From Alphaproteobacteria bacterium (GTDB lineage Bacteria; Pseudomonadota; Alphaproteobacteria; Geminicoccales; Geminicoccaceae): a DNA stretch of 38,156 nucleotides. The notes under the pieces were generated by a model. The model did not search any database, was not told the origin of the DNA, and saw only the letters and a list, made by a program, of their open reading frames with translations. The position numbers and the translations under genes were made by a program. Each line of letters begins with the position of its first letter. Positions within the stretch are counted from its first letter, which is position 1. Location of the stretch: NCBI GenBank assembly GCA_030431615.1, contig JAUIID010000024.1, forward strand, positions 1-38,156, read 5' to 3'. Shown piece by piece: positions 3,374 through 33,283 of this stretch.

Positions 3374-3375
3374 AA

Positions 3376-4061: not shown

Positions 4062-4083
4062 TGGCGGCTGCTCCTTGCCGCCA
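4062..4083 (+). other. Leader hairpin before permease gene
   Basis: TGGCGGC and GCCGCCA form a perfect 7-bp stem with an 8-base loop that contains CTCCTT, a sequence complementary to a ribosome binding site. It lies 23 bases before the permease start at 4106 and just before AAGGATGGAG. It could modulate translation of the permease; this is inference from sequence only. Confidence 0.3.
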
Positions 4084-4105
4084 AGGATGGAGCGCCGGCC
4101 CGCTG

Positions 4106-11132: not shown

Positions 11133-12092
11133 ATGCACAATCGGCGCGGGGCGATCACCGGGGCGGTTCTGGCTCTCGGACTGCTGGCCGGTACATCCGC
11201 CGCGGCCGAGGACTATCTCGTCGGCTATTCGCAGTTCTGGGGCACCAATCCCTTCCTCGTCACCATGGCGAACGGCGCCAAGAAGGCCGCCGCCGAATGG
11301 GCCGAGAAGGGTGTCAATGTCGACCTCATCTTCACCAATGGCGGCGACACCGACACGACCCGCCAGGTGGCCGATCTCGAGGACCTCTACGCCCAGGGGA
11401 TCGAGGGGCTGATCCTCTTCCCGGGCGACAGCATCGTCGTCGCCGAGCCGGTCAAGAACATCTACAACCCCGAGGGCATCCCGGTCGTCATCACGGATAT
11501 CGGCCTGCAGTCCGGCACCTGGGACACCTTCATCATCACCGACAACTATGCCGGCGGTCAGGCCGGCGCCGACCTCATGGCGGCGAACGTGCCGGCCGGC
11601 GCCAAGGTCATCACCTTCGACCACGCCCCCGGCAACGACAACGCCCAGAACCGCCAGCGCGGCTTCGAGGACCGGGCGAAGGAGCTCGGCCTCGACGTCC
11701 AGGAGGAGAAGTTCCTCAAGCTCTCGCTCGAGGAGGGCCGGCGGCTGATGGAGGATACGCTGGTCGCCATCCCCGACATCAAGGGCGTCTTCTTCTTCAA
11801 CCAGGTGGTGGCGCAGGGTGCCATGGCGGCCCTCGAGGCGGCCGGTCGCGACGACGTCAAGCTCGTCTCCTTCGACCTCGACCCGGTCAGCTACGAGCTG
11901 GTCAAGGAGGGCAGGATCCTCGGCCTCGTCGTTCAGGATCCGTTCCTCATGGGCTACGAGGGCGTCAACTCGATGGTGACCAAGCTGCAGGGCGGGACAC
12001 CGGTCGAGCGGATGGACATCCCGACCCGGATCCTGACCCAGGACAACGCGGCCGAGTTCGCCGACGACCCGCAGGTGACGGGCGGCCAGTAG
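11133..12092 (+). CDS. Sugar-binding periplasmic protein, RbsB type
   Basis: Solute-binding protein of 319 residues with a Sec signal peptide (AVLALGLLAGTSAAAED, cleavage near residue 25). The mature protein opens with YLVGYSQFWGTNPFLVTMANGAKKAA and has the type I periplasmic fold pattern of ribose/galactose-binding proteins: QVADLEDLYAQGIEGLILFP, DNYAGGQAGADLMA, and the closing LGLVVQDPFLMGYEGV. ATG 11133 follows AGGGGGG by 8 bases, a strong ribosome site. It is followed by its ATPase and permease and by three sugar-oxidising enzymes, so it probably binds the sugar those enzymes consume, such as L-fucose or a similar aldose. Confidence 0.92.
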   Translation: MHNRRGAITGAVLALGLLAGTSAAAEDYLVGYSQFWGTNPFLVTMANGAKKAAAEWAEKGVNVDLIFTNGGDTDTTRQVADLEDLYAQGIEGLILFPGDSIVVAEPVKNIYNPEGIPVVITDIGLQSGTWDTFIITDNYAGGQAGADLMAANVPAGAKVITFDHAPGNDNAQNRQRGFEDRAKELGLDVQEEKFLKLSLEEGRRLMEDTLVAIPDIKGVFFFNQVVAQGAMAALEAAGRDDVKLVSFDLDPVSYELVKEGRILGLVVQDPFLMGYEGVNSMVTKLQGGTPVERMDIPTRILTQDNAAEFADDPQVTGGQ

Positions 12093-12120
12093 AAGTCATC
12101 CGGGCGGATCGAAGCGGTTG

Positions 12121-13641: not shown

Positions 13642-14603
13642 TGATGTCCGACCCCACCCGGCGGCGCGAGCTGCTGCTGCAGTCCTACGGCCTGCTTCAG
13701 GCGCTGGCGGTGCTCGCCGTTCTCGTCGTCGTCATGTCGATCCTCTCGCCGCGCTTCCTTTCCTGGATCAACATCTCGAACCTGATGGGCCAGATGGCGG
13801 TCAACCTGATCGTCGCCGCCGGCATGACCATCGTCATGATCTCGGGCGAGTTCGACATCTCGGTCGGCTCCGTCGTGGCGCTGGCAGCTGCGGTCTCGGC
13901 CGCCCTCATGCAGCAGATGGGCGTGGTTCCGGCCGTCCTGCTCTCGCTCATGATCGGCCCGGCCATCGGCTTCTTCAACGGTGTCATCACCACCAAGGGC
14001 CGCATTCCCTCCTTCATCGTCACGCTCGGCACGCTGATGATGGCGCGCTCGCTCGCCTTCGTCGTCACCGGCGGCCAGGTCATCTCGAACCTGCCGGACG
14101 AGTTCAAGGCGATCGGCCAGGGCCGCCTCTTCAACGTCCCGATCCCGTTCCTGATCGCGCTCCTATGCTTCGCCGTCGGCTGGTTCGTCCTCGCCCGCAC
14201 CGCCTTCGGCAAGCGCGTCTATGCGGTTGGCGCCAACCGCATGGTCGCCACGCTCTCCGGCATCCACGCCGACAGGGTGAAGATCCAGTGCATGATGATC
14301 GTGGGCTTCACCGCCGCCTTTGCCGGCAACATCCTCTTGGCGCGCATCGGCGCCATCCAGGCGGACACGGCGCGCGGCCTCGAGTTCGAGGTGATCGCCG
14401 CCGTGGTCATCGGCGGCACCAGCCTCTATGGCGGCCAGGGCAACATCCTGCGCACCATCATCGGCGTCATCATCATCGCGCTCATCCGCAACTTCCTGAA
14501 CCTGTCGCGGATCGACATCTTTTGGCAGGACTTCGCGACCGGTGCGATCATCATCGCCGCCGTCCTGCTCGACGCCCTGCAGAAGCGCGTCGGCCAGCGC
14601 TAG
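13638..14603 (+). CDS. Sugar importer permease, RbsC type
   Basis: Membrane permease of 321 residues with 8-10 hydrophobic segments. Typical family features are LIVAAGMTIVMISGEFDISVGS near residue 55, GVITTKGRIPSFIVTLGTLM near 115, AVGANRMVATLSGI near 195 and VIGGTSLYGGQGN near 255. It overlaps the ATPase stop by four bases. It completes a one-permease, one-ATPase CUT2 importer with the binding protein at 11133. Confidence 0.93.
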   Translation: MMMSDPTRRRELLLQSYGLLQALAVLAVLVVVMSILSPRFLSWINISNLMGQMAVNLIVAAGMTIVMISGEFDISVGSVVALAAAVSAALMQQMGVVPAVLLSLMIGPAIGFFNGVITTKGRIPSFIVTLGTLMMARSLAFVVTGGQVISNLPDEFKAIGQGRLFNVPIPFLIALLCFAVGWFVLARTAFGKRVYAVGANRMVATLSGIHADRVKIQCMMIVGFTAAFAGNILLARIGAIQADTARGLEFEVIAAVVIGGTSLYGGQGNILRTIIGVIIIALIRNFLNLSRIDIFWQDFATGAIIIAAVLLDALQKRVGQR

Positions 14604-14640
14604 CCAAGCATTTCGGCCAGTATTCCGGGGAGAGAGACTT

Positions 14641-15675
14641 ATGGACCCGTTCAAGAAGCGCCGCCTCGGCAAGTCCGGGGTCGAGATCTCGTCCTTCGGC
14701 TTCGGCGGCGCCCCGCTCGGCGAGCTTTTCACGCGCGTCAGCGACGCCGACGCCGAGGCGACGCTCCAGGCCGCCTGGGACGAGGGTATTCGCTATTACG
14801 ACACGGCGCCCTGGTACGGCCGGGGCCAGAGCGAGCACCGGCTGGGTCGCTTCCTCTACCGCCAGCCGCGCAGCGAGTTCGTGCTCTCGACCAAGGTCGG
14901 CCGCATCCTCAAGGCACCGCGCCATCCCGAGCGCTTCGACACGGGTTTCTGGACCGGCGGGCTGCATTTCGACCACGTGTTCGACTACAGCTATGACGGC
15001 ATCATGCGGGCTTACGAGGACTGCCTGCAGCGCCTCGGCATGAACCGCATCGACCTGCTCGTCATCCACGACCTCGATCTGCGCCATCACGAGGCCGACG
15101 CCAAGGTCCAGGCCTATCTCGGCCAGCTCGCCACCAGCGGCTGGCGGGCGCTCGACGAGCTCAAGACGGCGGGCCTCATCCGGGGCATCGGTGCCGGCAT
15201 CAACGAGGACGGCATGATCCCCCGCTTCCTCGACCTCGTCGATCTCGACTTCTTCCTCCTGGCGCTGCGCTACACGCTGATGGACCACGACACGCTCGAC
15301 GTGGAGCTGCCCTATTGCGAGCGCCGCGATGTCGGTCTCGTCATCGGTGCGGTCTTCAGCTCCGGCATCACCGCGACCGGCCCCGTCCCCGGTGCGAAGT
15401 ACGACTATGCCGACGCCACGCCCGAGGCGCTCGAGAAGGTGCGCCGCATCCAGGCGGTCTGCGAGCGGCACAAGGTGGCCCTGCCGGCGGCGGCGCTGCA
15501 GTTCCCCTTCGGCCATCCCTGCACCGCCTCGGTAATCCCGGGCGGCTTCGAGCCGGCGCATATCAGGGCCAATCTCGACCACATGCGGGCATCCATCCCG
15601 GCCGATTTCTGGGCCGAGCTGAAACACGAGAAACTGATTCGCGCCGACGCACCGGTGCCGGGAGAGAACGCATGA
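14641..15675 (+). CDS. Aldo/keto reductase-type aldose 1-dehydrogenase (L-fucose dehydrogenase-like)
   Basis: NAD(P)-dependent oxidoreductase of 344 residues, predicted to oxidise an aldose to its lactone in the cytoplasm. The AKR catalytic tetrad is visible: Asp54 and Tyr59 in YDTAPWYGRG, Lys85 in STKVGR and His143 in VIHDLD. ASVIPGGFEPAHIRANLDHM near the C-terminus is the cofactor-phosphate region. The overall layout matches D-threo-aldose 1-dehydrogenase / L-fucose dehydrogenase. One relative in Microbacterium acts on pyridoxal, so B6 is an alternative, but the adjacent sugar importer, dehydratase and lactonase favour a sugar. Ribosome site GGGGAGAG lies a few bases before ATG 14641; the stop overlaps the next start (ATGA). 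Confidence 0.82.
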   Translation: MDPFKKRRLGKSGVEISSFGFGGAPLGELFTRVSDADAEATLQAAWDEGIRYYDTAPWYGRGQSEHRLGRFLYRQPRSEFVLSTKVGRILKAPRHPERFDTGFWTGGLHFDHVFDYSYDGIMRAYEDCLQRLGMNRIDLLVIHDLDLRHHEADAKVQAYLGQLATSGWRALDELKTAGLIRGIGAGINEDGMIPRFLDLVDLDFFLLALRYTLMDHDTLDVELPYCERRDVGLVIGAVFSSGITATGPVPGAKYDYADATPEALEKVRRIQAVCERHKVALPAAALQFPFGHPCTASVIPGGFEPAHIRANLDHMRASIPADFWAELKHEKLIRADAPVPGENA

Positions 15676-16856
15676 CCACCATCAGCCGCGTCGAGGTTCA
15701 CGTCTTCGGTTACGAGGTCGCGGATCTGGCCCTGCCGCCGCACGGTGCCGCCGGAGTCGGTAATCTCGTCTGGCAGAAGGGCGGGCGGATGCCGATGAGC
15801 CGCTATGCTGTCAGCATCGAGACGAAGGACGGTGCCAGAGGCGAGTACGTCACCCACTGGGTCGGCACGCCATCGGCGCTCGGCCAGACCCTGATGCTCG
15901 CCCCGCACCTTCTCGGCCGCGACCCCGACGCCCGGGTCGAGATCTGGGAAGACATGAAGCGCGAGATCCGGGCCTATGACCACATGGGCCACGGCCCCAT
16001 CGACATTGCACTCTGGGACCTCGCCGGCAAGCGGCTCGGCGCCTCGGTGGCGAGGCTCCTGGGCGGCTACCGCAAGCGCCTGCCGACCTATGCCAGCACC
16101 TATCACGGCCAGGACGTGAAGGGCGGGCTCGACACGCCCGAGGCCTTCGCCGACTACGCCGCGGCCTGCAAGGAGCAGGGCTTCGCCGGCTTCAAGATCC
16201 ATGGCTGGCACGACGGCGATGTCGGGCGCGAGGTGAAGAACGTGCTCGGCGTGCGTGCGGCCGTCGGCGACGGTTTCCCGCTGATGCTCGACCCGGCCTG
16301 CCAGCTTCGCACCTGGATGGACGCGCTCCGGGTCGGCCGCGCCTGCGACGAGGCCGGCTTCTTCTGGTACGAGGACCCCTATCGCGACGCCGGCGTCTCC
16401 GCTGAGGGCCACAAGCGCCTGCGCGAGAAGCTCGCCACGCCGCTGCTCGTCAGCGAGCATGTTCGCACCATCGAGCAGAAGGCCGCCTTCCTCATGGCCG
16501 GCGGGTCCGACATGATCCACGCCGATCCCGAATACGACATGGGCATCACCGGGGCGATCAAGCTCGCCCATCTTTGCGAGGCCTTCGGCCTCGACCTCCA
16601 GTTCCACGCCTGCGGCCCGGCGCATCGCGCCGTCATCAGCGCCACCCGCAACACCCATTTCTACGAGATGGCGCTGGTGGGACCCGGCATGGCGAACGCC
16701 GTGCCCCCGGTCTACACCTGCGGCTACAGCGACCAGCCCGAGGATCTGGGGAAGGATGGCTGTGTGCCGGTGCCTGACGGCCCCGGCCTCGGCGTGACCT
16801 ATGACTGGGGCTATATCGAGAAGCACCGGACAGCGCATCACGTGTTCGGGGGGTGA
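15672..16856 (+). CDS. Enolase-superfamily sugar-acid dehydratase (mandelate racemase group)
   Basis: Cytoplasmic magnesium enzyme of 394 residues, predicted to dehydrate the aldonate made by the neighbouring dehydrogenase and lactonase to a 2-keto-3-deoxy acid. Barrel motifs in order: FKIHGWHDGD (a K-x-H variant of the usual K-x-K), LMLDPACQ, WYEDPY and LLVSEHV with the three metal ligands D, E and E, then the Asp of HADPEYDMGITG and the His of LQFHACGPAH forming the His-Asp pair, and YEMALVG. The K-x-H at the second strand and the exact substrate are not assigned here. L-fuconate or a related aldonate is inferred from context. Confidence 0.78.
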   Translation: MTTISRVEVHVFGYEVADLALPPHGAAGVGNLVWQKGGRMPMSRYAVSIETKDGARGEYVTHWVGTPSALGQTLMLAPHLLGRDPDARVEIWEDMKREIRAYDHMGHGPIDIALWDLAGKRLGASVARLLGGYRKRLPTYASTYHGQDVKGGLDTPEAFADYAAACKEQGFAGFKIHGWHDGDVGREVKNVLGVRAAVGDGFPLMLDPACQLRTWMDALRVGRACDEAGFFWYEDPYRDAGVSAEGHKRLREKLATPLLVSEHVRTIEQKAAFLMAGGSDMIHADPEYDMGITGAIKLAHLCEAFGLDLQFHACGPAHRAVISATRNTHFYEMALVGPGMANAVPPVYTCGYSDQPEDLGKDGCVPVPDGPGLGVTYDWGYIEKHRTAHHVFGG

Positions 16857-16860
16857 GCCT

Positions 16861-17754
16861 GTGCGCATCACCGACGCCCACCACCACCTCTGGGACCGTG
16901 ACCTGCATCCCTATCCCTGGCTGGCAGAGCCGGTCCAGTCGCCTGCCATCGGCGACACGGCCCCGCTCTGCCGGAACTATTTGCTGGCCGACTTCATGGC
17001 CGACGCCCGGGGCCTCGATCTCGTCAGGTCCGTCCACCTCCAGGCCGAGATAGCGCCCGAGCTCGCCGTCCTGGAAACGCGCTGGCTGCAAGGCATCGCC
17101 GACGCCCCGGGCTCCGGCGGCTTCCCGCACGGCATCGTCGCCTTCGCCGATCTTGCCGCCCCCGATGTGGAGAAGGTGCTGGAGGCCCACGGCGAATTCG
17201 CCAACATGCGCGGCATCCGCCACATCCTGAACCGCCACAGCGATCCCGCGCTGAATGCCGCCAGCGCCGATTACCTGAACGACGCAGCCTGGCAACGCGG
17301 CTATGCCCGCCTCGCGAAGCACGGCTACTCCTTCGATCTGCAGCTCTACTGGCCGCAGATGGCCGAGGCCGCCGACCTCGCCGCCCGCCACCCCGACATC
17401 CCGGTGATCCTCAACCACACCGGCATGCCACGCGAGCGCGACAGCGACGGCATCGAAGGCTGGCGCCAGGGCATGCGCCAGCTCGCCCGATGCTCCCATG
17501 TCAGCGCCAAGATCTCCGGCCTCGGCATGGTCGACCACAACTGGACCGAGGACTCCATCCGCCCCTTCGTCCTCGACACCATCGAGATCTTCGGGCCAGA
17601 GCGCTGCGTCTTCGCCAGCAACTTCCCGGTCGACCGCCTGTATTCGGACTATGCGACCGTGTGGCGGGCCTATGACGGCATCACGAAGGACTTCAGCGCG
17701 GACGAGCGGGCGGCGATGCTCCACGACAACGCGGTGCGGGTCTATCGGCTCTGA
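16861..17754 (+). CDS. Amidohydrolase-family sugar lactonase (L-fucono/L-rhamnono-lactonase-like)
   Basis: Metal-dependent hydrolase of 297 residues, predicted to open the sugar lactone. The N-terminus RITDAHHHLWDRDLHPYPWL holds the His-x-His metal motif of the COG3618 amidohydrolase group, followed by NMRGIRHIL near residue 120, VILNHTGMPR near 182 and CVFASNFPVDR near 248 with the catalytic aspartate. The GTG at 16861 is preferred: a GGGGGG ribosome site ends 8 bases upstream and the protein then begins right at the family motif. It is the last gene of the sugar cluster, 4 bases after the dehydratase stop. No following 2-keto-3-deoxy-acid enzyme is present, so that step must be encoded elsewhere. 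Confidence 0.82.
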   Translation: MRITDAHHHLWDRDLHPYPWLAEPVQSPAIGDTAPLCRNYLLADFMADARGLDLVRSVHLQAEIAPELAVLETRWLQGIADAPGSGGFPHGIVAFADLAAPDVEKVLEAHGEFANMRGIRHILNRHSDPALNAASADYLNDAAWQRGYARLAKHGYSFDLQLYWPQMAEAADLAARHPDIPVILNHTGMPRERDSDGIEGWRQGMRQLARCSHVSAKISGLGMVDHNWTEDSIRPFVLDTIEIFGPERCVFASNFPVDRLYSDYATVWRAYDGITKDFSADERAAMLHDNAVRVYRL

Positions 17755-22653: not shown

Positions 22654-24123
22654 CTAGCCGAGCTCGGCCTTCTCGCCGGGCGGCGGGGTGGCGCCGAAGG
22701 AGCCCCGGGCGAGCACCGCCGCAGCACCGCCGTGGTGATCGATGATGGCCGCCTGGCCCGCCTTGGCCCGGGCGTCCGTCGCCTCGGGATCGAGCATGGC
22801 CCGCAGCTCCCGCTCGAACTCGGCGAGGGTCGTGGCATGCGCGGGGTCGGGGGCGAGGTCCGAGAGCTCTTCCGGGTCGGCCTCGAGATCGAAGAGCTGG
22901 GCCGGGTAGCCGGCATAGTGCACGTATTTCCACCTGTCCCGGCGGAGCATGTAGGCGCCGCTCACGGCCCCGGCCGCGTGGTACTCGCCGAAGACCGTGC
23001 GCTTGCGGTCGTCGGGCGCCAGCCGGAAGAGGCTCTCGCCCGGCAGGTCGCGGTCGGTGGGATCGGGGGTGACGCCCACCGCATCTAGGATGGTCGGAAA
23101 GAAGTCGATCATGGAGACGGGGGTCCGTACCACCTCGCCCGCGGCGATGCCGGGGCCGCTCATCAGAAGCGGGATATGCGCCGATTCCTCATAGAAGTTC
23201 GACTTCTGCCAGAGCCCGCGCACACCCAGGTTGTCGCCGTGGTCGGACATGTAGACGAGCCGCGTGTTCGCGCCGAGGCCGGCGCGCTCGATGGCGTCCC
23301 TGACCAGGCCGAGGTGGTGGTCGACGAAGCTGCAGAGGCCGAAATAGGCGGCGGTGGCGATCCGCCGCTTCTCGTCGTCGAAGAAGGTGTCGGTGATGTA
23401 GGCCTTGCGGAACTCGTCGAACCAGGGATGGCGGGGCCAGTCCTCGGGCCGGCAGGCCTTGGGCAGAGGCAGGCTCTCCGGCGGGTACATGGCGAAGAAC
23501 TCTTCGGGCGCGATGAGCGGGAAGTGCGGGGCGACGAAGCCGACCTGCAGCACCCAGGGCTCGTCGAGCGCCGGCGCCTCGTTCTCCAGCCAGCTCACCG
23601 CCTCCTTCGCGATGGCGCGGTCGTAGCGGGTGTAGCTCGATTCGCCGGCGCCGATCTCGTCGGCCACGACATGGCTCTTGCGCCGCGGTGCGAGGGGTGC
23701 CGTCTGGCGCATGGCGCCCTGCAGGTCGCCGATGCCGGCCACAGCGTGCATCGGGATGCGCTGCTCGTCGAAGCCCGCCTTCACGTCGTCGTTCAGGTAG
23801 TGCAGCTTGCCGATCGAGACGACCGGGCGGCCCGCGGCCTGCAGCCGGTGGCCCCAGGAGGGCGGCGTGCCGGCATAGGGGCTGGCGTTGCACCAGTAGC
23901 CCGTCTGGTGCGGGTAGCGGCCGGTGGCGAAGGCGGCGCGCGCCGGCATGCAGATCGGGCTGTTGGTATAGGCGTTGGCGTAGCGCGTCCCGGTGGCGGC
24001 GAGCCGATCGATGTTCGGCGTCCTGACGATCGGGTGGCCGTGGCAGCCGGTATATTGCGCGGCATGCTCGTCCGAGAGCACGATCACCAGGTTGGCCGGC
24101 TGCGGGCTGGCTGAGCTTGTCAT
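22654..24123 (-). CDS. Type I sulfatase, choline-sulfatase-like, apparently cytoplasmic
   Basis: 489-residue alkaline-phosphatase-fold hydrolase. The activation motif C58-x-P60-x-R62 (CMPAR) would have its cysteine turned into formylglycine. Metal residues are seen at Asp18 (VLSDEH) and Asp294-His295 (SDHGDN), and GKLHYL and LWQKSNFYEES fit the family. There is no signal peptide: the N-terminus is TSSASPQPANLVIVLSDEH, with the first core strand starting by residue 11, as in cytoplasmic choline sulfatase. Phosphonate monoester hydrolases share the motif and are the main alternative. It is the last gene of a long operon with an importer and sugar-acid enzymes, and overlaps the upstream gene by ATGA. 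Confidence 0.85.
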   Translation of the reverse strand: MTSSASPQPANLVIVLSDEHAAQYTGCHGHPIVRTPNIDRLAATGTRYANAYTNSPICMPARAAFATGRYPHQTGYWCNASPYAGTPPSWGHRLQAAGRPVVSIGKLHYLNDDVKAGFDEQRIPMHAVAGIGDLQGAMRQTAPLAPRRKSHVVADEIGAGESSYTRYDRAIAKEAVSWLENEAPALDEPWVLQVGFVAPHFPLIAPEEFFAMYPPESLPLPKACRPEDWPRHPWFDEFRKAYITDTFFDDEKRRIATAAYFGLCSFVDHHLGLVRDAIERAGLGANTRLVYMSDHGDNLGVRGLWQKSNFYEESAHIPLLMSGPGIAAGEVVRTPVSMIDFFPTILDAVGVTPDPTDRDLPGESLFRLAPDDRKRTVFGEYHAAGAVSGAYMLRRDRWKYVHYAGYPAQLFDLEADPEELSDLAPDPAHATTLAEFERELRAMLDPEATDARAKAGQAAIIDHHGGAAAVLARGSFGATPPPGEKAELG

Positions 24124-25010
24124 GGCGAGGTCGCTTCCTTCAGGCGTTGGCGGGCGCACCGGGCCAGCACCTCGGGTGCGGCCACCTGGGCGTCGGTCAG
24201 GGTTTCGCGATAGGTCTCCACCATGCCCGCCAGCATCGGCAGGGCGGCGGCCACCGCGCCCGGGAGGAGGACGCCGAGGGCAGCCGTATCCTTGCTCGCG
24301 ATCGGGTTGAAAGGACGGGTGCTCGCTTCGGCCTCGGCCATGAACGTCCCGTGCCGGTCCAGCACTACCGAGGCACCGGCGCCCGCACCGGTGCGCATGG
24401 CCTCGACCAGCGCTGCCGGCTCTATGCCGTGATGCGCCGCCAGGGCCAGGGCCTCGGCGATGGCGCACATTGTTGCGGCACCGACGCCGTTGTTCAGGAC
24501 CTTGGCGACGGCCGCCGTGCCACTCGCTCCCATCAGGAGCCAGCCGCGCCCGGCGGCGTCGAGGAAGGGGCGTGCGCGCTCGATCGAGGCCGGGTCGCCC
24601 GCGACCATGAGATAGAGCTGGCCGGCCAGGGCGTCCTTGCCGATGCCGATCACCGCAGCCTCCAGCGCGGCCGCGCCGGACTTGCGCCTTGCCGCCGTGA
24701 TCTCGCGCGTGAAATCGGGCGGCAGGGTCGAGCACTCGACCGTCACCCGGTCGGCGCCGGCGAGGGCGACGAGCCCGTCGGGGGCGAAGTACGTCGTGCG
24801 CACGGCCTCGAGGTCGGCGAGGCTGGTGGCGATGATGTCCGCCCGGTCGACCAGTTCCGCCCTGGAGCCCACGGGCGTCACGCCCCGTGCAGCGGCGCGC
24901 GCCGCGGCCGCCGGGTCGATGTCGTAGCCGGCAACCTCGTGGCCAGCGGCGGCGAGCCAGGCGGCGAGGTTGCCGCCGATATCGCCGAGCCCGATGACGC
25001 CGATCCTCAC
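24120..25010 (-). CDS. NAD(P)-dependent beta-hydroxyacid dehydrogenase (6PGDH / 3-hydroxyisobutyrate dehydrogenase family)
   Basis: 296 residues with an N-terminal Rossmann motif GVIGLGDIGGNLA and the usual substrate phrase VECSTLPPD near residue 92. The region GASGTAAVAKVLNNGVGAA near 165-180 holds the catalytic lysine in K-V-L-N-N. The family oxidises beta-hydroxyacids or reduces the matching semialdehydes, for example tartronate semialdehyde. In this operon it could act on a product of the dehydratase. It overlaps the lactonase gene upstream and the sulfatase gene downstream by four bases each. Confidence 0.88.
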   Translation of the reverse strand: MRIGVIGLGDIGGNLAAWLAAAGHEVAGYDIDPAAAARAAARGVTPVGSRAELVDRADIIATSLADLEAVRTTYFAPDGLVALAGADRVTVECSTLPPDFTREITAARRKSGAAALEAAVIGIGKDALAGQLYLMVAGDPASIERARPFLDAAGRGWLLMGASGTAAVAKVLNNGVGAATMCAIAEALALAAHHGIEPAALVEAMRTGAGAGASVVLDRHGTFMAEAEASTRPFNPIASKDTAALGVLLPGAVAAALPMLAGMVETYRETLTDAQVAAPEVLARCARQRLKEATSP

Positions 25011-25903
25011 GACCTGGCCTCCGGGGCGGCGCCGAAGCGCGGTTCCGGCAGGCCGGCGACGCCGACGTCGAAGGCCAGGAGATCACCGGCCATGGGCTCG
25101 CCCTCGAGCGCTGCCGGAGAAAGCCGCTGGCGTGCCGAGGTGACGTAGAGCGTGCGCCGGTCGGGGCCGCCGAAGGCGCAGGCGGTGGGCTGGCTCACCG
25201 GCAAGCGCAGGGTCGACACGAGGCGTCCCTCGGGGTCGAGACGGATGAGGGCGCTGCCGCCATAGCGGGCGTTCCAGAGGCAGCCCTCTGCGTCGATCGT
25301 CGAGCCGTCCGGCCCGCCCGGGGCGATGTCGGCCGGGGCGAAGGGGCGGAGCTCCAGCGCCTCGTCGCCGGTCGGGACGCTGGCCTGGAGGATTTCGCCC
25401 TTGCGGGTGTCGGTGAAGTACACGGTCCGCCCGTCCGGCGAGAAGGCGATCGAGTTCGGGCAGCGGATGCCGTCGAAGAGCTCGCGGGCGGCGCCGGTGG
25501 GTGCCACGTGATGCAGCCGGCCGGACGCCGCTCCGCCGCCATCCTGCATGGTGCCGCACCAGAGCGCCCCGTCGGGGCCGGCCTTGGTGTCGTTGATGCG
25601 GTTGCCGGGCCGGTCGGCGTCGAGGGTTGCGAGCGGGTCGCCGAGCCGGCCGGTGGCCGGATCGAACGGGTGGATGCTGCAACCCACGCCGACCACGAGC
25701 CCGTCCGCGGCCAGCGCCACCATGCCGGCGAGGCCGGGCATGGGAAAGCGCTGCAGCTCGCCGGTCGCCGGATCGAGCGAGAGCAGGGCAGGGGCGCGAA
25801 TGTCGACGAACCAGAGCCGGCCGGTCCGTTCGCACCAGACCGGGGACTCGCCGAGCGAGGCGCCGAGCTCGTGCCGTGCCGTGGGCTCGCAGCGCCCGCT
25901 CAC
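25007..25903 (-). CDS. SMP-30/gluconolactonase family lactonase
   Basis: 298-residue beta-propeller enzyme, predicted to hydrolyse a sugar lactone. Likely metal ligands are Glu of LGESPVW near residue 18, Asn of RCPNSIAFSPDG near 150 and Asp of GSTIDAEGCLW near 200; GNRINDTKAGPDGALWCGTM near 100 is also typical of the family. It starts with GTG at 25903, overlapping the dehydratase stop (GTGA). Together with the dehydratase upstream it forms the lactone-to-acid-to-keto acid part of an oxidative sugar pathway. Confidence 0.9.
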   Translation of the reverse strand: MSGRCEPTARHELGASLGESPVWCERTGRLWFVDIRAPALLSLDPATGELQRFPMPGLAGMVALAADGLVVGVGCSIHPFDPATGRLGDPLATLDADRPGNRINDTKAGPDGALWCGTMQDGGGAASGRLHHVAPTGAARELFDGIRCPNSIAFSPDGRTVYFTDTRKGEILQASVPTGDEALELRPFAPADIAPGGPDGSTIDAEGCLWNARYGGSALIRLDPEGRLVSTLRLPVSQPTACAFGGPDRRTLYVTSARQRLSPAALEGEPMAGDLLAFDVGVAGLPEPRFGAAPEARS

Positions 25904-27039
25904 GACGCGGCCCCGTCGAGCCGCAGCCGGGCGGCCACGGCGGGATCAATGGCGACGCCGAGGCCCGGCCCGGCAGGCAGGGCGGCCGCACCCCCCACCA
26001 CCGGCGAGACCCCGCCGCCGACCAGCTCGTCAAAGAGCGGCGTCTCGTCGAACTGGACTTCCAGGGAATCCAGCTCGGGCAGCACCGCCCCGACTTGCAG
26101 GCTCGCGGCGTGGCAGATCGGGCCGGTCGGGTTGTGCGGCGAGACGATGGCGCCATGGCGCGCCGCACTGGCCGCGAGCTCCCTGAAGCGGGCGAGGCCG
26201 CCCAGATACTTCACGTCGGGCATGATCACGTCATAGGAGCCCGCCCGGAGGAAGGGCTCGAACGCGGCCGGGCTCGTGCCCATTTCCAGCCCGGCGAGCC
26301 GGCAGCCCTGGCCCGCGGCCTGGCGCCGGAGGGCGGCGATCGCCGGGGCGGCTTCAGGCACCTCCGGGACGGGACACTCGATCCAGTCGAGAGCGAACTC
26401 GCGGCAGGCGTCAATCATCCGGACGGCAGCGGCCTGGTCGAAGCGCCAGTGGCAGTCGACCCGGAGCACCGCCTCGGAGCCGATGGCTTCGCGGGTCGCC
26501 CGGATTCGGGCGAGGCCCGGTGCCATGAGCGATGCGATGTCGCCGTTGGCGCACTTCTCGACGCTGATCTCGTCGAACGGCGCGAGCTTGAAGATCGTGT
26601 AGCCGGCGGCGATGGCGACGCCGGCACTGGCGGCGAAGCCCTCCGGCGTACGCGGGGAGGTGCGCCGGTTGATGTTGGCATAGAGCGGAATGTCCTGGCG
26701 GACGGCACCGCCGAGGAGGGCGTGGATCGGCTTGCCCAGCGCCTGGCCTTGGAGATCGAGGAGCGCCATGTCGAGGCTGGAGGCGAAGGCTGCCTCGGCG
26801 AGCGTCGGCTCGCCCTGCTGCAGCTTCGCGACGAAGCCGAGATCGACGGGGGCACCCTGCAGGCCCGGCAGGAAGCGGCCGGCCACCTCGCGCAGCACGT
26901 CCTCGCCGTTCGCGATGGTCGCCTCGCCCCAGCCGACGCGGCCATCGCCCGTCGCGAGGCGCAGGAAGGCCCAGACAGTCTTGCCGGTAATACGCAGGAG
27001 CTGGAAATCGGCTTCGGCGATGGTCGCTGGTCTGGTCAT
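25900..27039 (-). CDS. Enolase-superfamily sugar-acid dehydratase (second in the window)
   Basis: 379-residue magnesium enzyme, mandelate racemase group. Key motifs: FKLAPFDE near residue 155 with the catalytic Lys, RVDCHWRF, WIECPVPE and AGLEMGT with the metal ligands D, E and E, MPDVKYLGG with Asp, and IVSPHNPTGP with His. It is only distantly similar to the dehydratase at 15672 (that one has K-x-H and HADPEYD). ATG 27039 overlaps the stop of the GntR gene by four bases, which fixes the start. Substrate is unknown; a sugar acid released by the sulfatase and lactonase is inferred. Confidence 0.82.
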   Translation of the reverse strand: MTRPATIAEADFQLLRITGKTVWAFLRLATGDGRVGWGEATIANGEDVLREVAGRFLPGLQGAPVDLGFVAKLQQGEPTLAEAAFASSLDMALLDLQGQALGKPIHALLGGAVRQDIPLYANINRRTSPRTPEGFAASAGVAIAAGYTIFKLAPFDEISVEKCANGDIASLMAPGLARIRATREAIGSEAVLRVDCHWRFDQAAAVRMIDACREFALDWIECPVPEVPEAAPAIAALRRQAAGQGCRLAGLEMGTSPAAFEPFLRAGSYDVIMPDVKYLGGLARFRELAASAARHGAIVSPHNPTGPICHAASLQVGAVLPELDSLEVQFDETPLFDELVGGGVSPVVGGAAALPAGPGLGVAIDPAVAARLRLDGAAS

Positions 27040-27692
27040 CTGGGTATCGTCCTCGTCTGCCAATAGGCGTCGAATTGCGCCAGGAGCTGGTATTTCGCCT
27101 TGATCACGTGCGCCTTGGTCACCGCCGCGGCGTCGTCGGCAGCGCCGCTGGCGAAGGCCTCGAGGAGGCAGCGGTGGTCGCTGATCACGCCCGGGAAGCG
27201 GTCGGAGGCATAGCCGTAATGCGCCCAGAGGCGGCCCAGGAGGAGCCAGTGCCGGTCGACGATGGCAAAGGCCTCGGCATTGTCGGCGATGCGGTTGATC
27301 TCGCGATGGAAGCGCCGGTTGGCGTCGATCTCGGCACTGTCGTCGGCGCGTTCCACCGCCGCCTCGAGCTCGGCCTGCAGGGCCTCGAGCCGGGCGAGCC
27401 CATGGGCGTCCATGCGCTGGGCGGCCTGGCGGGCCAGCAGCGGCTCGAGCTCGGCGCGCATGGTCAAGAGGTTGTCGATATAGGTGCGGTCGATGGGCAG
27501 GGTGCGCGCCCCGCGCCTCGGCTCGAAGCGGACGAGGCCCTCGCCCGCCAGCTCGCGGAGCGCTTCGCGGATCGGCATGTGGCTGGAGCCGTAGCGGCTC
27601 GCCAGCATGTCGATGGTCAGCCGTGCCTCGGGGTCGAAGCTGCCCTTGACGATGTCGTCGCGCACCCGGTCCTTGATCGACTGGAGCTCCAT
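27036..27692 (-). CDS. GntR-family transcriptional regulator with FCD ligand domain
   Basis: 218 residues. The winged helix (about 5-68) shows ASRYGSSHMPIREALRELAGEGLV, the typical GntR recognition region, followed by FEPRRGART. The C-terminal FCD domain (about 75-205) has ANRRFHREI, SDHRCLLEA and TKAHVI, whose histidines usually hold a metal and ligand. It is embedded in the operon between the ATPase and the dehydratase, 39 bases after the ATPase stop. It probably represses the whole unit until a sugar-acid ligand binds; a palindrome at 33272-33283 is a candidate operator. Confidence 0.9.
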   Translation of the reverse strand: MELQSIKDRVRDDIVKGSFDPEARLTIDMLASRYGSSHMPIREALRELAGEGLVRFEPRRGARTLPIDRTYIDNLLTMRAELEPLLARQAAQRMDAHGLARLEALQAELEAAVERADDSAEIDANRRFHREINRIADNAEAFAIVDRHWLLLGRLWAHYGYASDRFPGVISDHRCLLEAFASGAADDAAAVTKAHVIKAKYQLLAQFDAYWQTRTIPR

Positions 27693-27731
27693 GCCGGGCT
27701 CAGCCCCGGTGCCGCGGACGGGCGGGGTGCG

Positions 27732-29461
<1,730 letters not shown>

Positions 29462-29462
<1 letters not shown>

Positions 29463-30370
29463 CAGCGGGCACCCCCGGTGCGCAGGCGCGGGTTCGCCAG
29501 CTCGTCGAGGCCGGCCGTGACGAGGTAGAGTCCGACGAAGAGGACGACGAGCGTGATCACCGGGGTCAGCACCCACCACCACATGCCGAGCAGGAAGGCC
29601 GAGTAGTGGATGGCCCAGTAGACGGTCATGCCGAGCGTCGGCTCGTTCTGCGGCCCGAGGCCGAGGGCTTCGAGGCCGACCGAGGCGAGAACGGCGGTGG
29701 CGGTGGCGAGCACGAAGCTGACCATCAGATAGGGCAGGAGGTTGGGCATCATTTCCTTGAAGATGATGCCGAAGGAGCCGGTGCCGTTGAGCCTTGCGGT
29801 GTTGACGTAGCCCGCCTCGCGCATCACCAGCACCTGGCTCCTGATCCGCCGCGCCGGCTCGCGCCAGGAGAGGGCGGCGATGATCCAGACCATGGCGTCG
29901 GTGCTCATCGAGCCCTGGATGTTGGCGGCGATGACGATGAGGATCAGCAAGGGCGGCACGGCGAGGAAGACGTCGGTGAGCAGGCTGATCACGGCATCGA
30001 TCCAGCCGCGGAAGAAGCCGGCGACGAAGCCCAGGATCGTGCCGATCACCACGCCGATGAAGCCGGCGAGCAGGCCGACCTTGGCGGTCAGCCAGGTGCC
30101 GACGATGAGCACGGCGAAGAGATCCCGGCCCTGCTTGTCGGTGCCGAGCCAGTAGCGCGCCGAGGGCGGCTTGCCGGGCGAGGCCGAGAGCGGCTCGGCG
30201 AGCGAGATGTCGTAGAAGGCATGGCCCGCGGCGACGAGGGTGAAGAGGGCGAGCAGGAGAAGGAGCCCGGCGCCGAGGCTGCGGTTGCGGCCGAGATAGA
30301 GGAAGACCGACCGCCAGCGGCGGCGGGACGAGCCCCATTCGAGCGGCGTCGCCGGCAGCGCCCTAGCCAT
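29462..30370 (-). CDS. ABC importer permease, DppC/OppC type
   Basis: 302-residue membrane subunit. A first helix lies near LGAGLLLLLALFTLVAAGHAF, then the signature YWLGTDKQGRDLFAVLIVG near residue 75 and the coupling loop NTARLNGTGSFGIIFKEMMPN near 190. The EAA motif is partly degenerate (N-T-A-R-L-N-G). ATG 30370 is preceded by GGAGAGG and overlaps the upstream permease stop by 8 bases. It works with the DppB-type subunit and the fused ATPase. Confidence 0.91.
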
Positions 30371-31370
30371 GCGCCTCTCCACCGGCACGGATCCTCGGAT
30401 CGAGCAGGGGGTAGAGCAGGTCGAGCAGCATCAGCGAGATGGCGACCGTCAGGATGAGGACGAAGACGCAGCCGAAGATGAGGAAGTAGTCGACCAGCAG
30501 CACCGAATTGTAGAGCAGCGTGCCGATCCCGGGATAGACGAAGACCCGCTCGACCAGAATGGCGCCGGCGACGATGTTGCCGAAGGAGAGCACGAGGGTG
30601 GTGATCTGCGGCGTCATGGCGTTGCGCACGGCGTAGCGCCAGAAGCGGCGGCGATCGCTCAGGCCCTTGGCCCGGGCGAAGTTCATGTAGTCCTCGCCCT
30701 GCACCGTCACCATCATGCCGCGCATCGAGAGCGCCCAGATGCCGATGGCGGCGAGCACGATGGAAAGGGCGGGCAGCACGGCGTGGTAGGCGACGTCGGC
30801 GATCGCCGTCGGGTTCCAGCCGAGGTTGAGCCCGACGCTGTAGCCACGGGCCGGAGGGAACCAGCCGAGCACAAGGGCGAAGACATAAACGAGGATCAGC
30901 CCGACGAGGTAGAACGGGATCGCGGCCAGCACCATGAAGAGCGGCACGATCCGCGCCAGCCAGGCCGAGGAGCGCCGCCAGATCGTGAGCGCACCGAGGA
31001 AGGTGCCGATCACGAACGAGATCAGCGTCGCCACGCCGAGCAAGACGATGCTCCAAGGCAGGGCGGTCAGCACGTGCTGCGAGACCCGGTCCGGGAAGTA
31101 GTTGATCGAGACGCCGAGATCGAAGCGGGCGGTGTCGGCCAGCATGGAGAGATATTGCCGCCAGAGCGGCCGGTCGGTGCCGAACTTGGCCTGGTACTGC
31201 TCGACCATCTCCTCGATGCCGACGGCCGAGCCGCCGGAATCCCCGAGTGCCTGGGCCAGCCGCTCCTCGATCGGGTCGCGGTCGGTCAGGCGCGGCAGCA
31301 GGAAGTTGATCGAGGCCGCAAGCCAGATGACGAGCACCATCAGGCCGAGACGCTTCAGGACGCGGATCAT
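30363..31370 (-). CDS. ABC importer permease, DppB/OppB type
   Basis: 335-residue membrane subunit. Start MIRVLKRLGLMVLVIWLAAS, then a periplasmic loop with QYQAKFGTDRPLWRQYLSML, DLGVSINYFPDRV, the coupling region FARAKGLSDRRRFWRYAVRNAMTPQ near residue 235, and a closing LLYPLLDPRIRAGG, all typical of the family. The loop is longer than in classical DppB, as in importers of larger or charged ligands. It follows the binding-protein gene after a strong hairpin. Confidence 0.92.
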   Translation of the reverse strand: MIRVLKRLGLMVLVIWLAASINFLLPRLTDRDPIEERLAQALGDSGGSAVGIEEMVEQYQAKFGTDRPLWRQYLSMLADTARFDLGVSINYFPDRVSQHVLTALPWSIVLLGVATLISFVIGTFLGALTIWRRSSAWLARIVPLFMVLAAIPFYLVGLILVYVFALVLGWFPPARGYSVGLNLGWNPTAIADVAYHAVLPALSIVLAAIGIWALSMRGMMVTVQGEDYMNFARAKGLSDRRRFWRYAVRNAMTPQITTLVLSFGNIVAGAILVERVFVYPGIGTLLYNSVLLVDYFLIFGCVFVLILTVAISLMLLDLLYPLLDPRIRAGGEAHG

Positions 31371-31391
31371 CTCTTGTCTCGTCAGGAGGGC

Positions 31392-31416
31392 GCGGGCGGC
31401 CGCGCAGGCCGCCCGC
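31392..31416 (-). other. Strong intercistronic hairpin between binding-protein and permease genes
   Basis: GCGGGCGGCC and GGCCGCCCGC form a perfect 10-bp stem with a 5-base loop, 19 bases past the binding-protein stop. No T run follows on the minus strand. Same position and likely role as the hairpin at 9511-9544: raising binding-protein levels over permease levels. Confidence 0.6.
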
Positions 31417-31434
31417 TGGCTTTCATCCGGCCGA

Positions 31435-33195
31435 CTACTGGGCGGGCTCGACGTGGTGGGCGAGCAGCGTGCCCCAGCCCGAGATGAAGCAGGCGACGCA
31501 GGCCGAGCCGTAGGGGTTCTCGGTCGACGGCCAGTTGGTCCAGTAGGTCTCGTTCAGGGCGTTCAGGTGGTAGCCCTGCTCGAGCGGCACCTCGACCACG
31601 TTGGCGAACCAGATGTCCATGGCCTGGTGGAAGAGCGGCATGAGCCCCGGGTCACCCGGCGGCAGGAGCTCCATCTGGTCGACGATGGCGTCGAGCTCCG
31701 GGTTGCTCCAGCGGGCGACGAAGAAGGTGATCGTACCGACCGGCGACTGGTTTTCCGTCTTGTACATGCGCAGCGTGTCGACCGGGTCGAAGATGCTGCC
31801 GCCATTGTGGCCGAAGACGTGCCACTCGGACTCGCCGGCGCGGAACTTGCGGAAGCTGTCCGGCGTCTGCGAGTACTCGGCGTCGAAGCCGGCCTTGCGC
31901 AGCTGCTGCACCAGCACCTGGGAGACCGCCGCCAGGGCCGGCTGCGCCTCGAGCGGCCCGCCGACACGCTCGCCGTCCTTCGCCCAGAAGCCCTCGCCGT
32001 CCTTCTCGTAGCCGGCCTTGGTCATGTACTCGGCCGAGAGGTCGAGATCGAAGACGTCGACCTGGTGCTTCTCGACCAGGTCCATCGCACTGTCGATATA
32101 GGGCAGGAGCGGCTCGTAGGCCGGGTAGGGGAAGTAGTTCGGCGAATTGGCGCCGTCCCAGGCGAACTCGATCAGCTGGTCGCGATTGATGGCGTGCAGC
32201 ACCGCCTTGCGGACGTTGATGTCGAGGAACGGCGAGCCCTCGGCCATGTGGTTGAAGTAGAGGGAGTGCGGCCACCAGTCCATGTAGCCGTAGGGCGGCT
32301 CGCGGCCGGCGAAGGTGGTAATCTTGTCGTTCTGGTCGAGGATCGACTGCACCAGCGACGGCGAGGCGATGACGAAGGTGGCGTCGATCTGGTTGGCCAC
32401 GACGAGCTGCGCGTTGCGCTCGTCGTCGGGCGCCGGGATGCTGATGATCCGCTCCGGTGCCGGCATCTCCATGACGCCCGTGGCCGCACCCCACCAGTCG
32501 TCGCGCCGGTCGAGGACGATCTCGTTGGGCGTCGTCTCGACCAGCTTCCAGGCGCCGGTGCCGACCGGCCAGCCCTTCTCGAGGTCGAGGAAGGTGAAGT
32601 CGGCGATGTTCTCGACCCCGGACCAGATGTGCTCCGGCACCCAGATCAGCCCGTGGCCGAAATAGTTTGTGAGCTGGCGGAAGACATAGCGCGGGTCCGG
32701 CTTGATCAGGTCGACCTGGACGGTGAGCGGGTCGACCACCGTGGCACCGCTGATCTGGTTGGCGACCTCGATCGCCTTCCGCAGGTCCTTCTTCGTCTGG
32801 CCGTTCTCGAGCAGCATGTTGAGGGTGAAGGCGACGTCCTCGGCATCGAAGGCCTCGCCGTCGCTCCAGGTCACGCCGTCGCGCAGCTTGACGGTGACGC
32901 TCGTGAAGTCGTCATTGTACGCGTAGCTCTCGGCGATCCAGGGAATGTGCTCGCCGGTGAAGTGGTTGTAGGTGAAGAGCGGCTCGTTGACGAACATGAT
33001 GCCGTTGCGGAGCTCGGCACCCAGGGAATACCAGTTGGCGTTGTTGGGGGCACTCAGGGTCGGCGAGCCGACGCTCCAGCCAATGGTGACCAGCGTGCGA
33101 TCGCGCGGCACCTCGGCCCGGTCCTGCGCAGCGGCGGTCCCCGCCAGCAGCAAACACGTCGCGAGCCCGGCGGCAAACGACTCCATCCTCGACAT
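31435..33195 (-). CDS. ABC importer substrate-binding protein, peptide/nickel type (SBP_bac_5)
   Basis: 586-residue periplasmic protein with a Sec signal peptide (FAAGLATCLLLAGTAAAQ, cleavage near residue 25). Family features are VTVKLRDGVTWSDGEAFDAEDVAF near residue 120 and FLDINVRKAVLHAINRDQL near 320. ATG 33195 follows a GGGGG ribosome site by about 5 bases; the upstream in-frame ATG at 33261 would place a non-signal tail in front. It is the first gene of the nine-gene unit. The ligand is unknown but should be a small molecule that the cytoplasmic sulfatase and sugar-acid enzymes can use. Confidence 0.9.
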   Translation of the reverse strand: MSRMESFAAGLATCLLLAGTAAAQDRAEVPRDRTLVTIGWSVGSPTLSAPNNANWYSLGAELRNGIMFVNEPLFTYNHFTGEHIPWIAESYAYNDDFTSVTVKLRDGVTWSDGEAFDAEDVAFTLNMLLENGQTKKDLRKAIEVANQISGATVVDPLTVQVDLIKPDPRYVFRQLTNYFGHGLIWVPEHIWSGVENIADFTFLDLEKGWPVGTGAWKLVETTPNEIVLDRRDDWWGAATGVMEMPAPERIISIPAPDDERNAQLVVANQIDATFVIASPSLVQSILDQNDKITTFAGREPPYGYMDWWPHSLYFNHMAEGSPFLDINVRKAVLHAINRDQLIEFAWDGANSPNYFPYPAYEPLLPYIDSAMDLVEKHQVDVFDLDLSAEYMTKAGYEKDGEGFWAKDGERVGGPLEAQPALAAVSQVLVQQLRKAGFDAEYSQTPDSFRKFRAGESEWHVFGHNGGSIFDPVDTLRMYKTENQSPVGTITFFVARWSNPELDAIVDQMELLPPGDPGLMPLFHQAMDIWFANVVEVPLEQGYHLNALNETYWTNWPSTENPYGSACVACFISGWGTLLAHHVEPAQ

Positions 33196-33229
33196 CAAAG
33201 CCCCCCTGATTTGTCTTCTTCCGATCAAA

Positions 33230-33258
33230 AACATGCCGGGCAACGCCCAGCAGGTCAA
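33230..33258 (-). promoter_or_regulatory. Predicted promoter of the nine-gene sulfatase operon
   Basis: On the minus strand TTGACC (33258-33253) and CATGTT (33235-33230) are separated by 17 bases, a fair sigma-70-type match. Transcription would start near 33223, giving a leader of about 28 bases to the ATG at 33195. A second GATCAAAA half-site (33223-33230) touches the -10 box. Confidence 0.4.
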
Positions 33259-33271
33259 CAACGCCGGTGCG

Positions 33272-33283
33272 ATTTGATCAAAT
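33272..33283. promoter_or_regulatory. Perfect palindrome ATTTGATCAAAT, candidate GntR operator
   Basis: A 12-bp perfect palindrome, A/T-rich in a GC-rich setting, 14 bases upstream of the predicted -35 box of the operon that encodes a GntR/FCD regulator. Its arm recurs as GATCAAAA at 33223-33230, with centres 53 bp apart, about five helical turns. Operators of FCD-type GntR proteins are short palindromes of this size. Confidence 0.5.

What the first reader, a model, noticed from the sequence alone, without database searches (positions are those of the whole stretch)
22654..33283. Nine-gene operon for uptake and cytoplasmic breakdown of a sulfated sugar or sugar acid
On one strand, most genes overlapping: peptide-type importer, GntR/FCD regulator, enolase-superfamily dehydratase, SMP-30 lactonase, beta-hydroxyacid dehydrogenase and a sulfatase with CMPAR and no signal peptide. 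Sulfated glycans are normally desulfated outside the cytoplasm. Here the sulfate ester seems to be imported whole, cut inside, and its sugar oxidised through lactone, acid and keto acid. I know of no described pathway with this set. Seen: genes and motifs. Inferred: substrate and order.
Basis: partly seen in the sequence, partly recalled or inferred. Interest (0 to 1): 0.8.

Follow-up and report, generated by a model that had tools for sequence, protein, structure and literature searches.

The report
Import-then-desulfate operon for sulfated sugar acid
A bacterium carries nine adjoining genes that look built to bring a sulfate-tagged sugar acid into the cell whole, cut off the sulfate inside, and break down the rest; the parts are of known types, but I found no description of this combination.

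Summary
Nine genes on the minus strand (22654-33195) form one tight run, 6 of 8 junctions overlapping: family-5 binding protein, two Opp-type permeases, fused double ATPase, GntR/FCD regulator, GalD-like enolase-superfamily dehydratase, SMP-30 lactonase, divergent beta-hydroxyacid-dehydrogenase-family enzyme, and a formylglycine sulfatase without signal peptide. A perfect palindrome, ATTTGATCAAAT (33272-33283), lies 77-88 bp before the first gene. Among 18 other neighbourhoods of the dehydratase, the exact decamer TTTGATCAAA lies nearby in the 6 that have the GntR partner directly upstream and in none of the other 12. A sulfatase directly adjoins the dehydratase in 4 of the 18, all in one genus, in two arrangements. 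The choline-binding residues are mostly lost while catalytic residues are kept. Formylglycine-generating-enzyme homologues are present. The neighbouring GlcD-like gene is core, not operon. Best reading: import of an O-sulfated sugar acid or lactone, desulfation and dehydration in the cytoplasm. Substrate and step order are inferred. Each gene is of a known kind; the assembly is a new variant, complete only here among the genomes examined. Many other sulfatases of this genome also lack signal peptides and lie beside importers.

The parts
33272..33283 (.). palindrome ATTTGATCAAAT, proposed operator of the GntR/FCD regulator
   Evidence: only match in the window at up to 2 mismatches, 0.15 expected; exact TTTGATCAAA within 3 kb of the dehydratase in L109, L174, L113, L136, L176, L178 and in none of 12 neighbourhoods without the GntR partner
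31435..33195 (-). extracellular solute-binding protein, family 5 (SBP_bac_5)
   Evidence: PF00496 179 bits; closest solved: mannoside- and chitin-oligosaccharide-binding proteins
30363..31370 (-). Opp/Dpp-type permease B
   Evidence: PF00528 110 bits
29462..30388 (-). Opp/Dpp-type permease C
   Evidence: PF00528 82 bits
27732..29462 (-). fused double ATPase of the importer (OppD- plus OppF-like in one chain)
   Evidence: PF00005 two stretches, PF08352 two stretches
27036..27692 (-). GntR/FCD transcriptional regulator
   Evidence: PF00392 and PF07729; 47% identical to the regulators beside the dehydratase in L109 and L113, 40% in L136
25900..27039 (-). enolase-superfamily sugar-acid dehydratase, GalD-like (K151, D195, H197, E221, E252, D275, H302; roles recalled)
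   Evidence: PF13378 155 bits; residues invariant in 12 aligned sequences
25007..25903 (-). SMP-30/gluconolactonase-type lactonase
   Evidence: PF08450 244 bits; closest solved 7plb, E 1e-49
24120..25010 (-). beta-hydroxyacid-dehydrogenase-family enzyme, divergent (keeps Lys in AKVLNN, has VIGI where 3q3c has VSGG)
   Evidence: PF03446 and PF14833; alignments
22654..24123 (-). formylglycine sulfatase without signal peptide, choline-sulfatase-like fold, most of the choline pocket replaced
   Evidence: PF00884 154 bits; AlphaFold pLDDT 90.6; TM about 0.82 to choline sulfatase; residue map

Best explanation
A regulated catabolic operon for an O-sulfated sugar acid (or its lactone). The binding protein and Opp-type ABC importer bring the intact sulfate ester into the cytoplasm. 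There the sulfatase, activated by a formylglycine-generating enzyme encoded elsewhere in the genome, removes sulfate. SMP-30 opens any lactone, the GalD-like dehydratase removes water from the aldonate to give a 2-keto-3-deoxy acid, and the beta-hydroxyacid-dehydrogenase-family enzyme does a further redox step before general metabolism takes over. The GntR/FCD protein is proposed to bind TTTGATCAAA before the binding-protein gene and so to control importer and enzymes together. Shown: genes, order, overlaps, conserved residues, absence of a signal peptide, maturation-enzyme homologues, the palindrome and its association with the GntR partner, recurrent partners. Inferred: substrate, order of steps, operator function, the redox step, the fate of the product.
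For: Overlapping genes. Exact TTTGATCAAA near the dehydratase in 6 of 6 neighbourhoods with the GntR partner and 0 of 12 without, in alpha-proteobacteria and a gamma-proteobacterial plasmid; in six genomes with the pair, 8 of 14 copies lie there. Sulfatase directly beside the dehydratase in 4 of 18 other neighbourhoods: L109 and L174 GntR-dehydratase-sulfatase-TctCBA, L175 dehydratase-sulfatase-one ORF-TctCBA, L032 sulfatase then dehydratase. The sulfatases differ: L032's is 59% identical to the window's, L109's 39% and in a distant clade, L175's 37%. An SMP-30 gene (39%) directly follows the dehydratase in L177, with a short-chain dehydrogenase next. The nearest sulfatase in the tree (Sulfitobacter plasmid L137, 59%, sister at 100/99) has a dienelactone hydrolase, TctCBA and a 33% identical dehydrogenase-family gene nearby. 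Catalytic residues kept, choline contacts mostly replaced. FGE homologues.
Against: No sugar dehydrogenase and no 2-keto-3-deoxy-acid aldolase in the operon. No sulfatase directly beside the dehydratase in 14 of 18 other neighbourhoods (in L113 the contig ends inside the dehydratase). All four that have one are from genus g144, and the two without GntR (L175, L032) also lack the decamer nearby. SMP-30 was labelled within 5 kb of 0, and enolase-superfamily genes of 4, of 50 relatives of the sulfatase. The dehydrogenase-family enzyme lacks the VSGG motif of its nearest solved relative, so its reaction is unclear. The binding protein could not be modelled (pLDDT 49).
Confidence: 0.6

Rival explanations
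1. One reading: a neutral sulfated sugar is imported, oxidised to a lactone by a dehydrogenase encoded elsewhere, and desulfated at some point on the way.
For: Nearest solved binding proteins are oligosaccharide binders. Relatives of the dehydratase stand near aldo-keto reductases or short-chain dehydrogenases (L109, L113, L177). An AKR-like gene sits in another operon of the window (14641-15675; label by eye).
Against: No dehydrogenase for sugars inside the operon. In L109, L174 and L175 the core is paired with TctCBA importers, whose known cargoes are carboxylates (recalled).
Confidence: 0.17
2. The hydrolase is a phosphonate monoester or phosphodiester hydrolase of the same superfamily, and the operon breaks down a phosphorylated or phosphonylated sugar acid.
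For: Enzymes of this superfamily are catalytically promiscuous (PMC5870055, passages). The regulator's best NCBIfam match is a phosphonate-utilisation regulator, far below cut-off (88 vs 271.5 bits).
Against: Best fold match is choline sulfatase (TM about 0.82); phosphonate monoester hydrolases reach about 0.70. K106 and H108 are kept as in the solved sulfatase; that phosphonate hydrolases replace this pair is recalled, not tested. No phosphonate-cleaving genes in the operon.
Confidence: 0.08
3. The sulfatase is a passenger that scavenges sulfate from unrelated esters; the rest of the operon handles an ordinary unsulfated sugar acid, as in the sulfatase-free relatives.
For: The GntR-dehydratase pair occurs with Opp or NitT/TauT-type importers and without an adjoining sulfatase (L136, L176, L178).
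Against: Sulfatase sits directly beside the dehydratase, or one to two genes away here, in three arrangements with different gene order and two groups of sulfatases; here it overlaps the gene before it by 4 bp.
Confidence: 0.12
4. A choline-O-sulfate utilisation operon.
For: Closest solved enzyme and best NCBIfam match is choline sulfatase. His145 of the solved enzyme aligns with H151.
Against: TIGR03417 cut-off not reached (284.7 vs 433.45 bits). E386, W129, Y123, W143, Y144 of the solved enzyme align with A384, D133, A127, K149, S150. No betaine genes in the operon.
Confidence: 0.02

Closest known systems
Choline-O-sulfate utilisation (BetC choline sulfatase)
   Same: Sulfate ester imported and cleaved inside the cell (recalled for BetC) by a formylglycine sulfatase of the same fold (TM about 0.82)
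   Different: About 31% identity, choline contacts mostly replaced, partners are sugar-acid enzymes and an Opp-type importer
De Ley-Doudoroff and other non-phosphorylated aldonate pathways (galactonate dehydratase type; recalled)
   Same: Lactonase plus GalD-like enolase-superfamily dehydratase
   Different: No sugar dehydrogenase or aldolase in the operon; sulfatase and Opp-type importer added
Sulfo-Entner-Doudoroff sulfoglycolysis (recalled)
   Same: Lactonase, sugar-acid dehydratase and a beta-hydroxyacid-dehydrogenase-family enzyme in one cluster; weak match to sulfolactaldehyde 3-reductase (79.6 vs 348 bits)
   Different: That pathway handles C-S sulfonates and has no sulfatase (recalled); here an O-sulfate hydrolase is present
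Sulfatase-TctCBA cassettes on alphaproteobacterial plasmids (L138, L140, L141, L143, L146, L147)
   Same: Relatives of the same sulfatase (45-50% identity) beside a dedicated importer
   Different: MarR or LysR gene beside them, carboxylate-type importer, no gene labelled as this dehydratase group in the regions seen

Membership tests
Family S1 formylglycine sulfatase | C/S-x-P-x-R maturation motif and sulfatase catalytic residues | tested here: met
   C58-M-P-A-R62; N79, K106, H108, H200, D294, H295, K307 align with the solved enzyme, D18 likewise; PF00884 over cut-off
Family S1 formylglycine sulfatase | formylglycine-generating enzyme in the genome | tested here: met
   two PF03781 matches over cut-off; both keep GGS-x-LC-x3-[YF]C (role of the cysteines recalled); L001 matches a solved FGE at E 7e-66. 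No NCBIfam equivalog cut-off was reached by either
Family S1 formylglycine sulfatase | hydrolysis of a sulfate ester | not testable with these tools
   needs assay
Choline sulfatase (TIGR03417, S1_12) | curated score and quaternary-ammonium contacts (W129, H145, E386) | tested here: not met
   284.7 of 433.45 bits; W129 to D133, E386 to A384, H145 kept as H151 (the W129-H145 stretch is weakly aligned)
GalD-type sugar-acid dehydratase of the enolase superfamily | metal-ligand and acid-base positions (recalled) | tested here: met
   K151, D195, H197, E221, E252, D275, H302 invariant in 12 sequences
Galactonate or gluconate dehydratase equivalogs | curated score | tested here: not met
   137.9 of 750 and 135.9 of 311 bits
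SMP-30/gluconolactonase | SGL domain and metal-ligand positions (recalled) | tested here: met
   243.9 bits, cut-off 26.3; GESPVW, NRIND, CPNSIAF, DGSTID aligned with 7plb
3-hydroxyisobutyrate / tartronate-semialdehyde reductase family | NAD domain, catalytic Lys, VSGG substrate motif, curated equivalog scores | tested here: not met
   Domains and Lys met; VIGI where 3q3c has VSGG; all listed equivalog cut-offs missed
De Ley-Doudoroff pathway operon | dehydrogenase, lactonase, dehydratase and kinase/aldolase together (recalled) | tested here: not met
   only lactonase and dehydratase present
Opp/Dpp-type ABC importer | family-5 binding protein, two BPD permeases, two ABC domains with oligo_HPY | tested here: met

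The most novel reading that the evidence does not exclude
This operon is one example of a general, unrecognised strategy: some alphaproteobacteria carry large sets of cytoplasmic sulfatases, each wired to its own importer (Opp, TctCBA, sugar ABC, NitT/TauT, TRAP), and so take up small organic sulfate esters, especially sulfated sugar acids, intact and desulfate them inside, instead of desulfating polymers outside.
Probability: 0.4. Interest if true: 0.75.

Novelty: new variant of a known kind. Interest (0 to 1): 0.58.

Why it matters
Sulfated glycans are usually pictured as being stripped of sulfate outside the cytoplasm. An operon that imports a sulfated sugar acid whole, with a candidate operator and a defined sulfatase branch, would name a substrate class for a group of unassigned sulfatases and give a direct handle on organosulfate turnover in the bacteria that carry them. 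The TTTGATCAAA site makes the regulation testable at once.

Tried and rejected
GlcD as tenth gene: at first attractive, because GlcD-like genes were labelled within 5 kb of 6 of 50 relatives of the sulfatase, among them plasmid loci L138, L140, L144 and L146 at 53-56% identity. Rejected for this window: 34 of 37 genomes have this gene at E 1e-100 or better, and it is within 10 kb of a sulfatase listed in only three of them (G000, G307, G095). In sister species G029 it follows fliP without the operon (L149). L164 (G030) shows the same fliP-GlcD order, but that contig ends inside GlcD. The plasmid cases remain unexplained.

Choline sulfate: rejected. Terminator-like hairpin at 33252-33234: 2 found in the region against 3.6 expected in shuffles, so not used. 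Sigma-70-type promoters: 0 found.

Binding-protein structure: AlphaFold model unusable (pLDDT 49.3, pTM 0.47; 7 sequences, the others 17-23% identical), so no fold search was made with it. Second TTTGATCAAA site of this genome (C196:1433, L215): no GntR gene beside it; it may be chance (0.2 per genome expected by composition).

Literature: ten full-text searches. Searches returned nothing. (15 of 42 listed in the last) returned listings in which no title or abstract start describes such a system; I opened none of those. Papers seen as passages only: PMC5870055, PMC9063841, PMC5735121, PMC8857213, PMC5649159, PMC5066984; none read whole.

Rows dropped: 9 of 27 loci not used in sulfatase alignment A1, L044 among them for stops in frame; 27 of 77 sulfatase places left out of the importer count for short flanks; sulfatases whose trimmed length was under 440 residues, L032 among them, left out of the tree. 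Three of 33 sulfatase matches of this genome (C76, C296, C74) were not fetched for signal-peptide inspection.

Full report
What is there. The minus strand of 22654-33195 holds nine genes in one run: binding protein, permeases B and C, fused double ATPase, GntR/FCD regulator, enolase-superfamily dehydratase, SMP-30 lactonase, beta-hydroxyacid-dehydrogenase-family enzyme, sulfatase. Each has a Pfam match over its cut-off. Gaps are +64, -26, -1, +39, -4, -4, -4, -4 bp; the last five genes overlap by 4 bp each, as in translational coupling.

Boundaries. A GlcD-like gene 101 bp upstream on the same strand is not counted in. It is present in 34 of 37 genomes at E 1e-100 or better. In sister species G029 it follows DksA, ThiF and fliP homologues, as here, but the genes after it match none of the nine (L149). 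In G030 the same order is seen up to the contig end inside GlcD (L164). The nine genes are therefore an accessory block beside a core locus. Against this, GlcD-like genes were labelled within 5 kb of 6 of 50 relatives of the sulfatase, which I cannot explain.

A likely shared control site. Between GlcD and the first gene lies ATTTGATCAAAT at 33272-33283, the only match in the window at up to two mismatches, where 0.15 were expected. I scanned 3 kb on either side of the dehydratase in all 18 other neighbourhoods examined. The exact decamer TTTGATCAAA is there in 6: L109, L113 and L136 (two copies each), L174, L176 and L178. These are exactly the 6 with the GntR partner directly upstream; none of the other 12 has it, though L110 and L112 have copies with one mismatch. 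L136 is a gamma-proteobacterial (Rahnella) plasmid. Over 24 genomes, 15 have the decamer somewhere. In the six genomes with the operon or pair (G000, G158, G787, G260, G779, G771) there are 14 sites, 8 of them at these operons, where 0.0008 would be expected (the six were chosen because they have the pair). Against a strict reading: G328, G405, G224 and G139 carry 13, 20, 10 and 4 sites that were not inspected. Of 13 further sites inspected, 5 stand directly before other GntR genes, most with enolase-superfamily neighbours (L217, L221, L222, L225, L226), and 8 do not. The motif thus fits a wider regulator subfamily. In the window the site sits before the importer, 5.6 kb from the regulator gene, which would link importer and enzymes.

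Conserved partners. Excluding the window, 18 neighbourhoods of the dehydratase were examined: 10, 7 (one of them is L032), and the Rahnella plasmid. A sulfatase is directly adjacent in 4: L109, L174, L175 and L032/L173. GntR is directly upstream in 6: L109, L174, L113, L176, L178, L136. SMP-30 directly follows in 1 (L177, 39% identical, with a short-chain dehydrogenase next). In L113 the contig ends inside the dehydratase. L106-L108 have an altronate/galactarate-dehydratase-type gene next (Pfam for L107; the other two by eye). L110, L111, L112, L114, L115 and L179 show no evident link (L114 and L115 by labels only). All four sulfatase cases outside the window are from one genus (g144). They comprise two arrangements and two groups of sulfatases: L032's is 59% identical to the window's, L109's 39% and L175's 37%, the last two 70% identical to each other. 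A rough binomial estimate for three independent adjacencies among 12 lineages gives about 0.001; it rests on assumed gene counts. In L109, L174 and L175 the importer is TctCBA, here it is Opp-type. A more distant case is L128 (G152), where a sulfatase of L109's clade is followed by a 31% identical dehydratase relative and TctC. The dehydratase group is rare: 10 of 385 genomes of the class at E 1e-50, this one included, and 1 of 398 of the phylum at E 1e-55, namely this one.

The sulfatase. It matches choline sulfatase best but misses that family's cut-off. The catalytic positions compared are kept. Glu386, Trp129, Tyr123, Trp143 and Tyr144, described as choline contacts in passages of PMC5870055 and PMC9063841, align with Ala, Asp, Ala, Lys and Ser; His145 is kept. 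In the tree its sister is the Sulfitobacter plasmid protein of L137 (100/99), whose neighbours are a dienelactone hydrolase, TctC, TctB, a 33% identical dehydrogenase-family gene and TctA. The dehydrogenase-family genes of L148 and L137 are 37 and 32% identical to the window's and both lie near a sulfatase of this family. In this genome 4 of 12 dehydrogenase homologues, the window's own included, lie within 3 kb of a sulfatase, 0.57 expected.

Is the sulfatase linked to import in general? Of 50 relatives with enough flank, 26 have a labelled importer within 5 kb, most often TctCBA (14); 24 have none. The labels come from a small reference set built partly from these same loci. In this genome there are 33 sulfatase matches, 30 family-5 binding proteins and 17 TctC. 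Ten of 33 sulfatases lie within 3 kb of one of the latter two, 2.3 expected; within 6 kb 12, 4.1 expected. Of 12 dehydrogenase homologues 1 lies within 3 kb, 0.84 expected. Contig ends were not modelled. Of 30 sulfatase frames inspected, I judge by eye that 25 have a start codon within about 11 residues of the first strand and no hydrophobic leader, 2 have a leader (C93, C242) and 3 are unclear or cut. This is the basis of the bolder reading.

Mechanism. Import as an intact ester, cytoplasmic sulfate removal, lactone opening, dehydration to a 2-keto-3-deoxy acid, a further redox step. The acid or lactone level is preferred because relatives in one genus use a carboxylate-type importer (cargo class recalled) and no sugar dehydrogenase is in the operon; this is an inference. 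The identity of the sugar acid, the position of the sulfate and the order of the steps are unknown.

Novelty. Every gene is of a known kind, and cytoplasmic desulfation of an imported ester has a precedent in choline-O-sulfate (recalled). Sulfatases are enriched in sponge and sediment metagenomes (PMC5735121, passages), and subfamilies S1_13 to S1_72 had no known substrate when classified (PMC5066984, passages). I found no paper describing this set in ten searches of the open library (listed under Tried and rejected); subscription papers and preprints are not in it. I rate it a new variant of a known kind.

Noticed in passing
window 11133-17754 (+): A ribose-type sugar ABC importer followed by genes that look like an aldo-keto reductase, an enolase-superfamily gene and an amidohydrolase, probably a separate oxidative sugar operon (labels partly by eye).
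   Followed up: no
window 1739-7741 (+): A second Opp-type importer (binding protein, two permeases, two ATPases) in the same window, with a short-chain-dehydrogenase-like gene in front.
   Followed up: no
own genome: L182, L184, L185, L190-L198, L056, L057, L020: Many further sulfatases without signal peptide sit beside importer genes of different kinds, several with GntR or enolase-superfamily genes.
   Followed up: partly
L062, L126, L131, L138, L143, L146, L147: A recurrent cassette MarR-sulfatase facing TctCBA, in five of these seven with a second sulfatase beside TctA, on plasmids and in other alphaproteobacterial genomes.
   Followed up: partly
L175:6497-7906 (-): A 469-residue protein between sulfatase and TctC in the dehydratase-sulfatase-TctCBA run, with no Pfam match.
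   Followed up: no
L106, L107, L108: The same dehydratase group is followed by a split altronate/galactarate-dehydratase-type pair (large subunit plus SAF domain), a possible alternative downstream route (Pfam for L107 only).
   Followed up: no
L217, L221, L222, L225, L226: TTTGATCAAA also stands directly before other GntR genes, most of them next to enolase-superfamily genes, suggesting a wider regulator subfamily.
   Followed up: partly
L138, L140, L144, L146: GlcD-like FAD oxidases 53-56% identical to the window's core gene lie near sulfatases of this family on plasmids, a possible second kind of partner.
   Followed up: partly
window 24120-25010 (-): The dehydrogenase-family enzyme and its relatives near sulfatases (L148, L137) lack the VSGG motif of the nearest solved relative, hinting at a separate subfamily.
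   Followed up: partly
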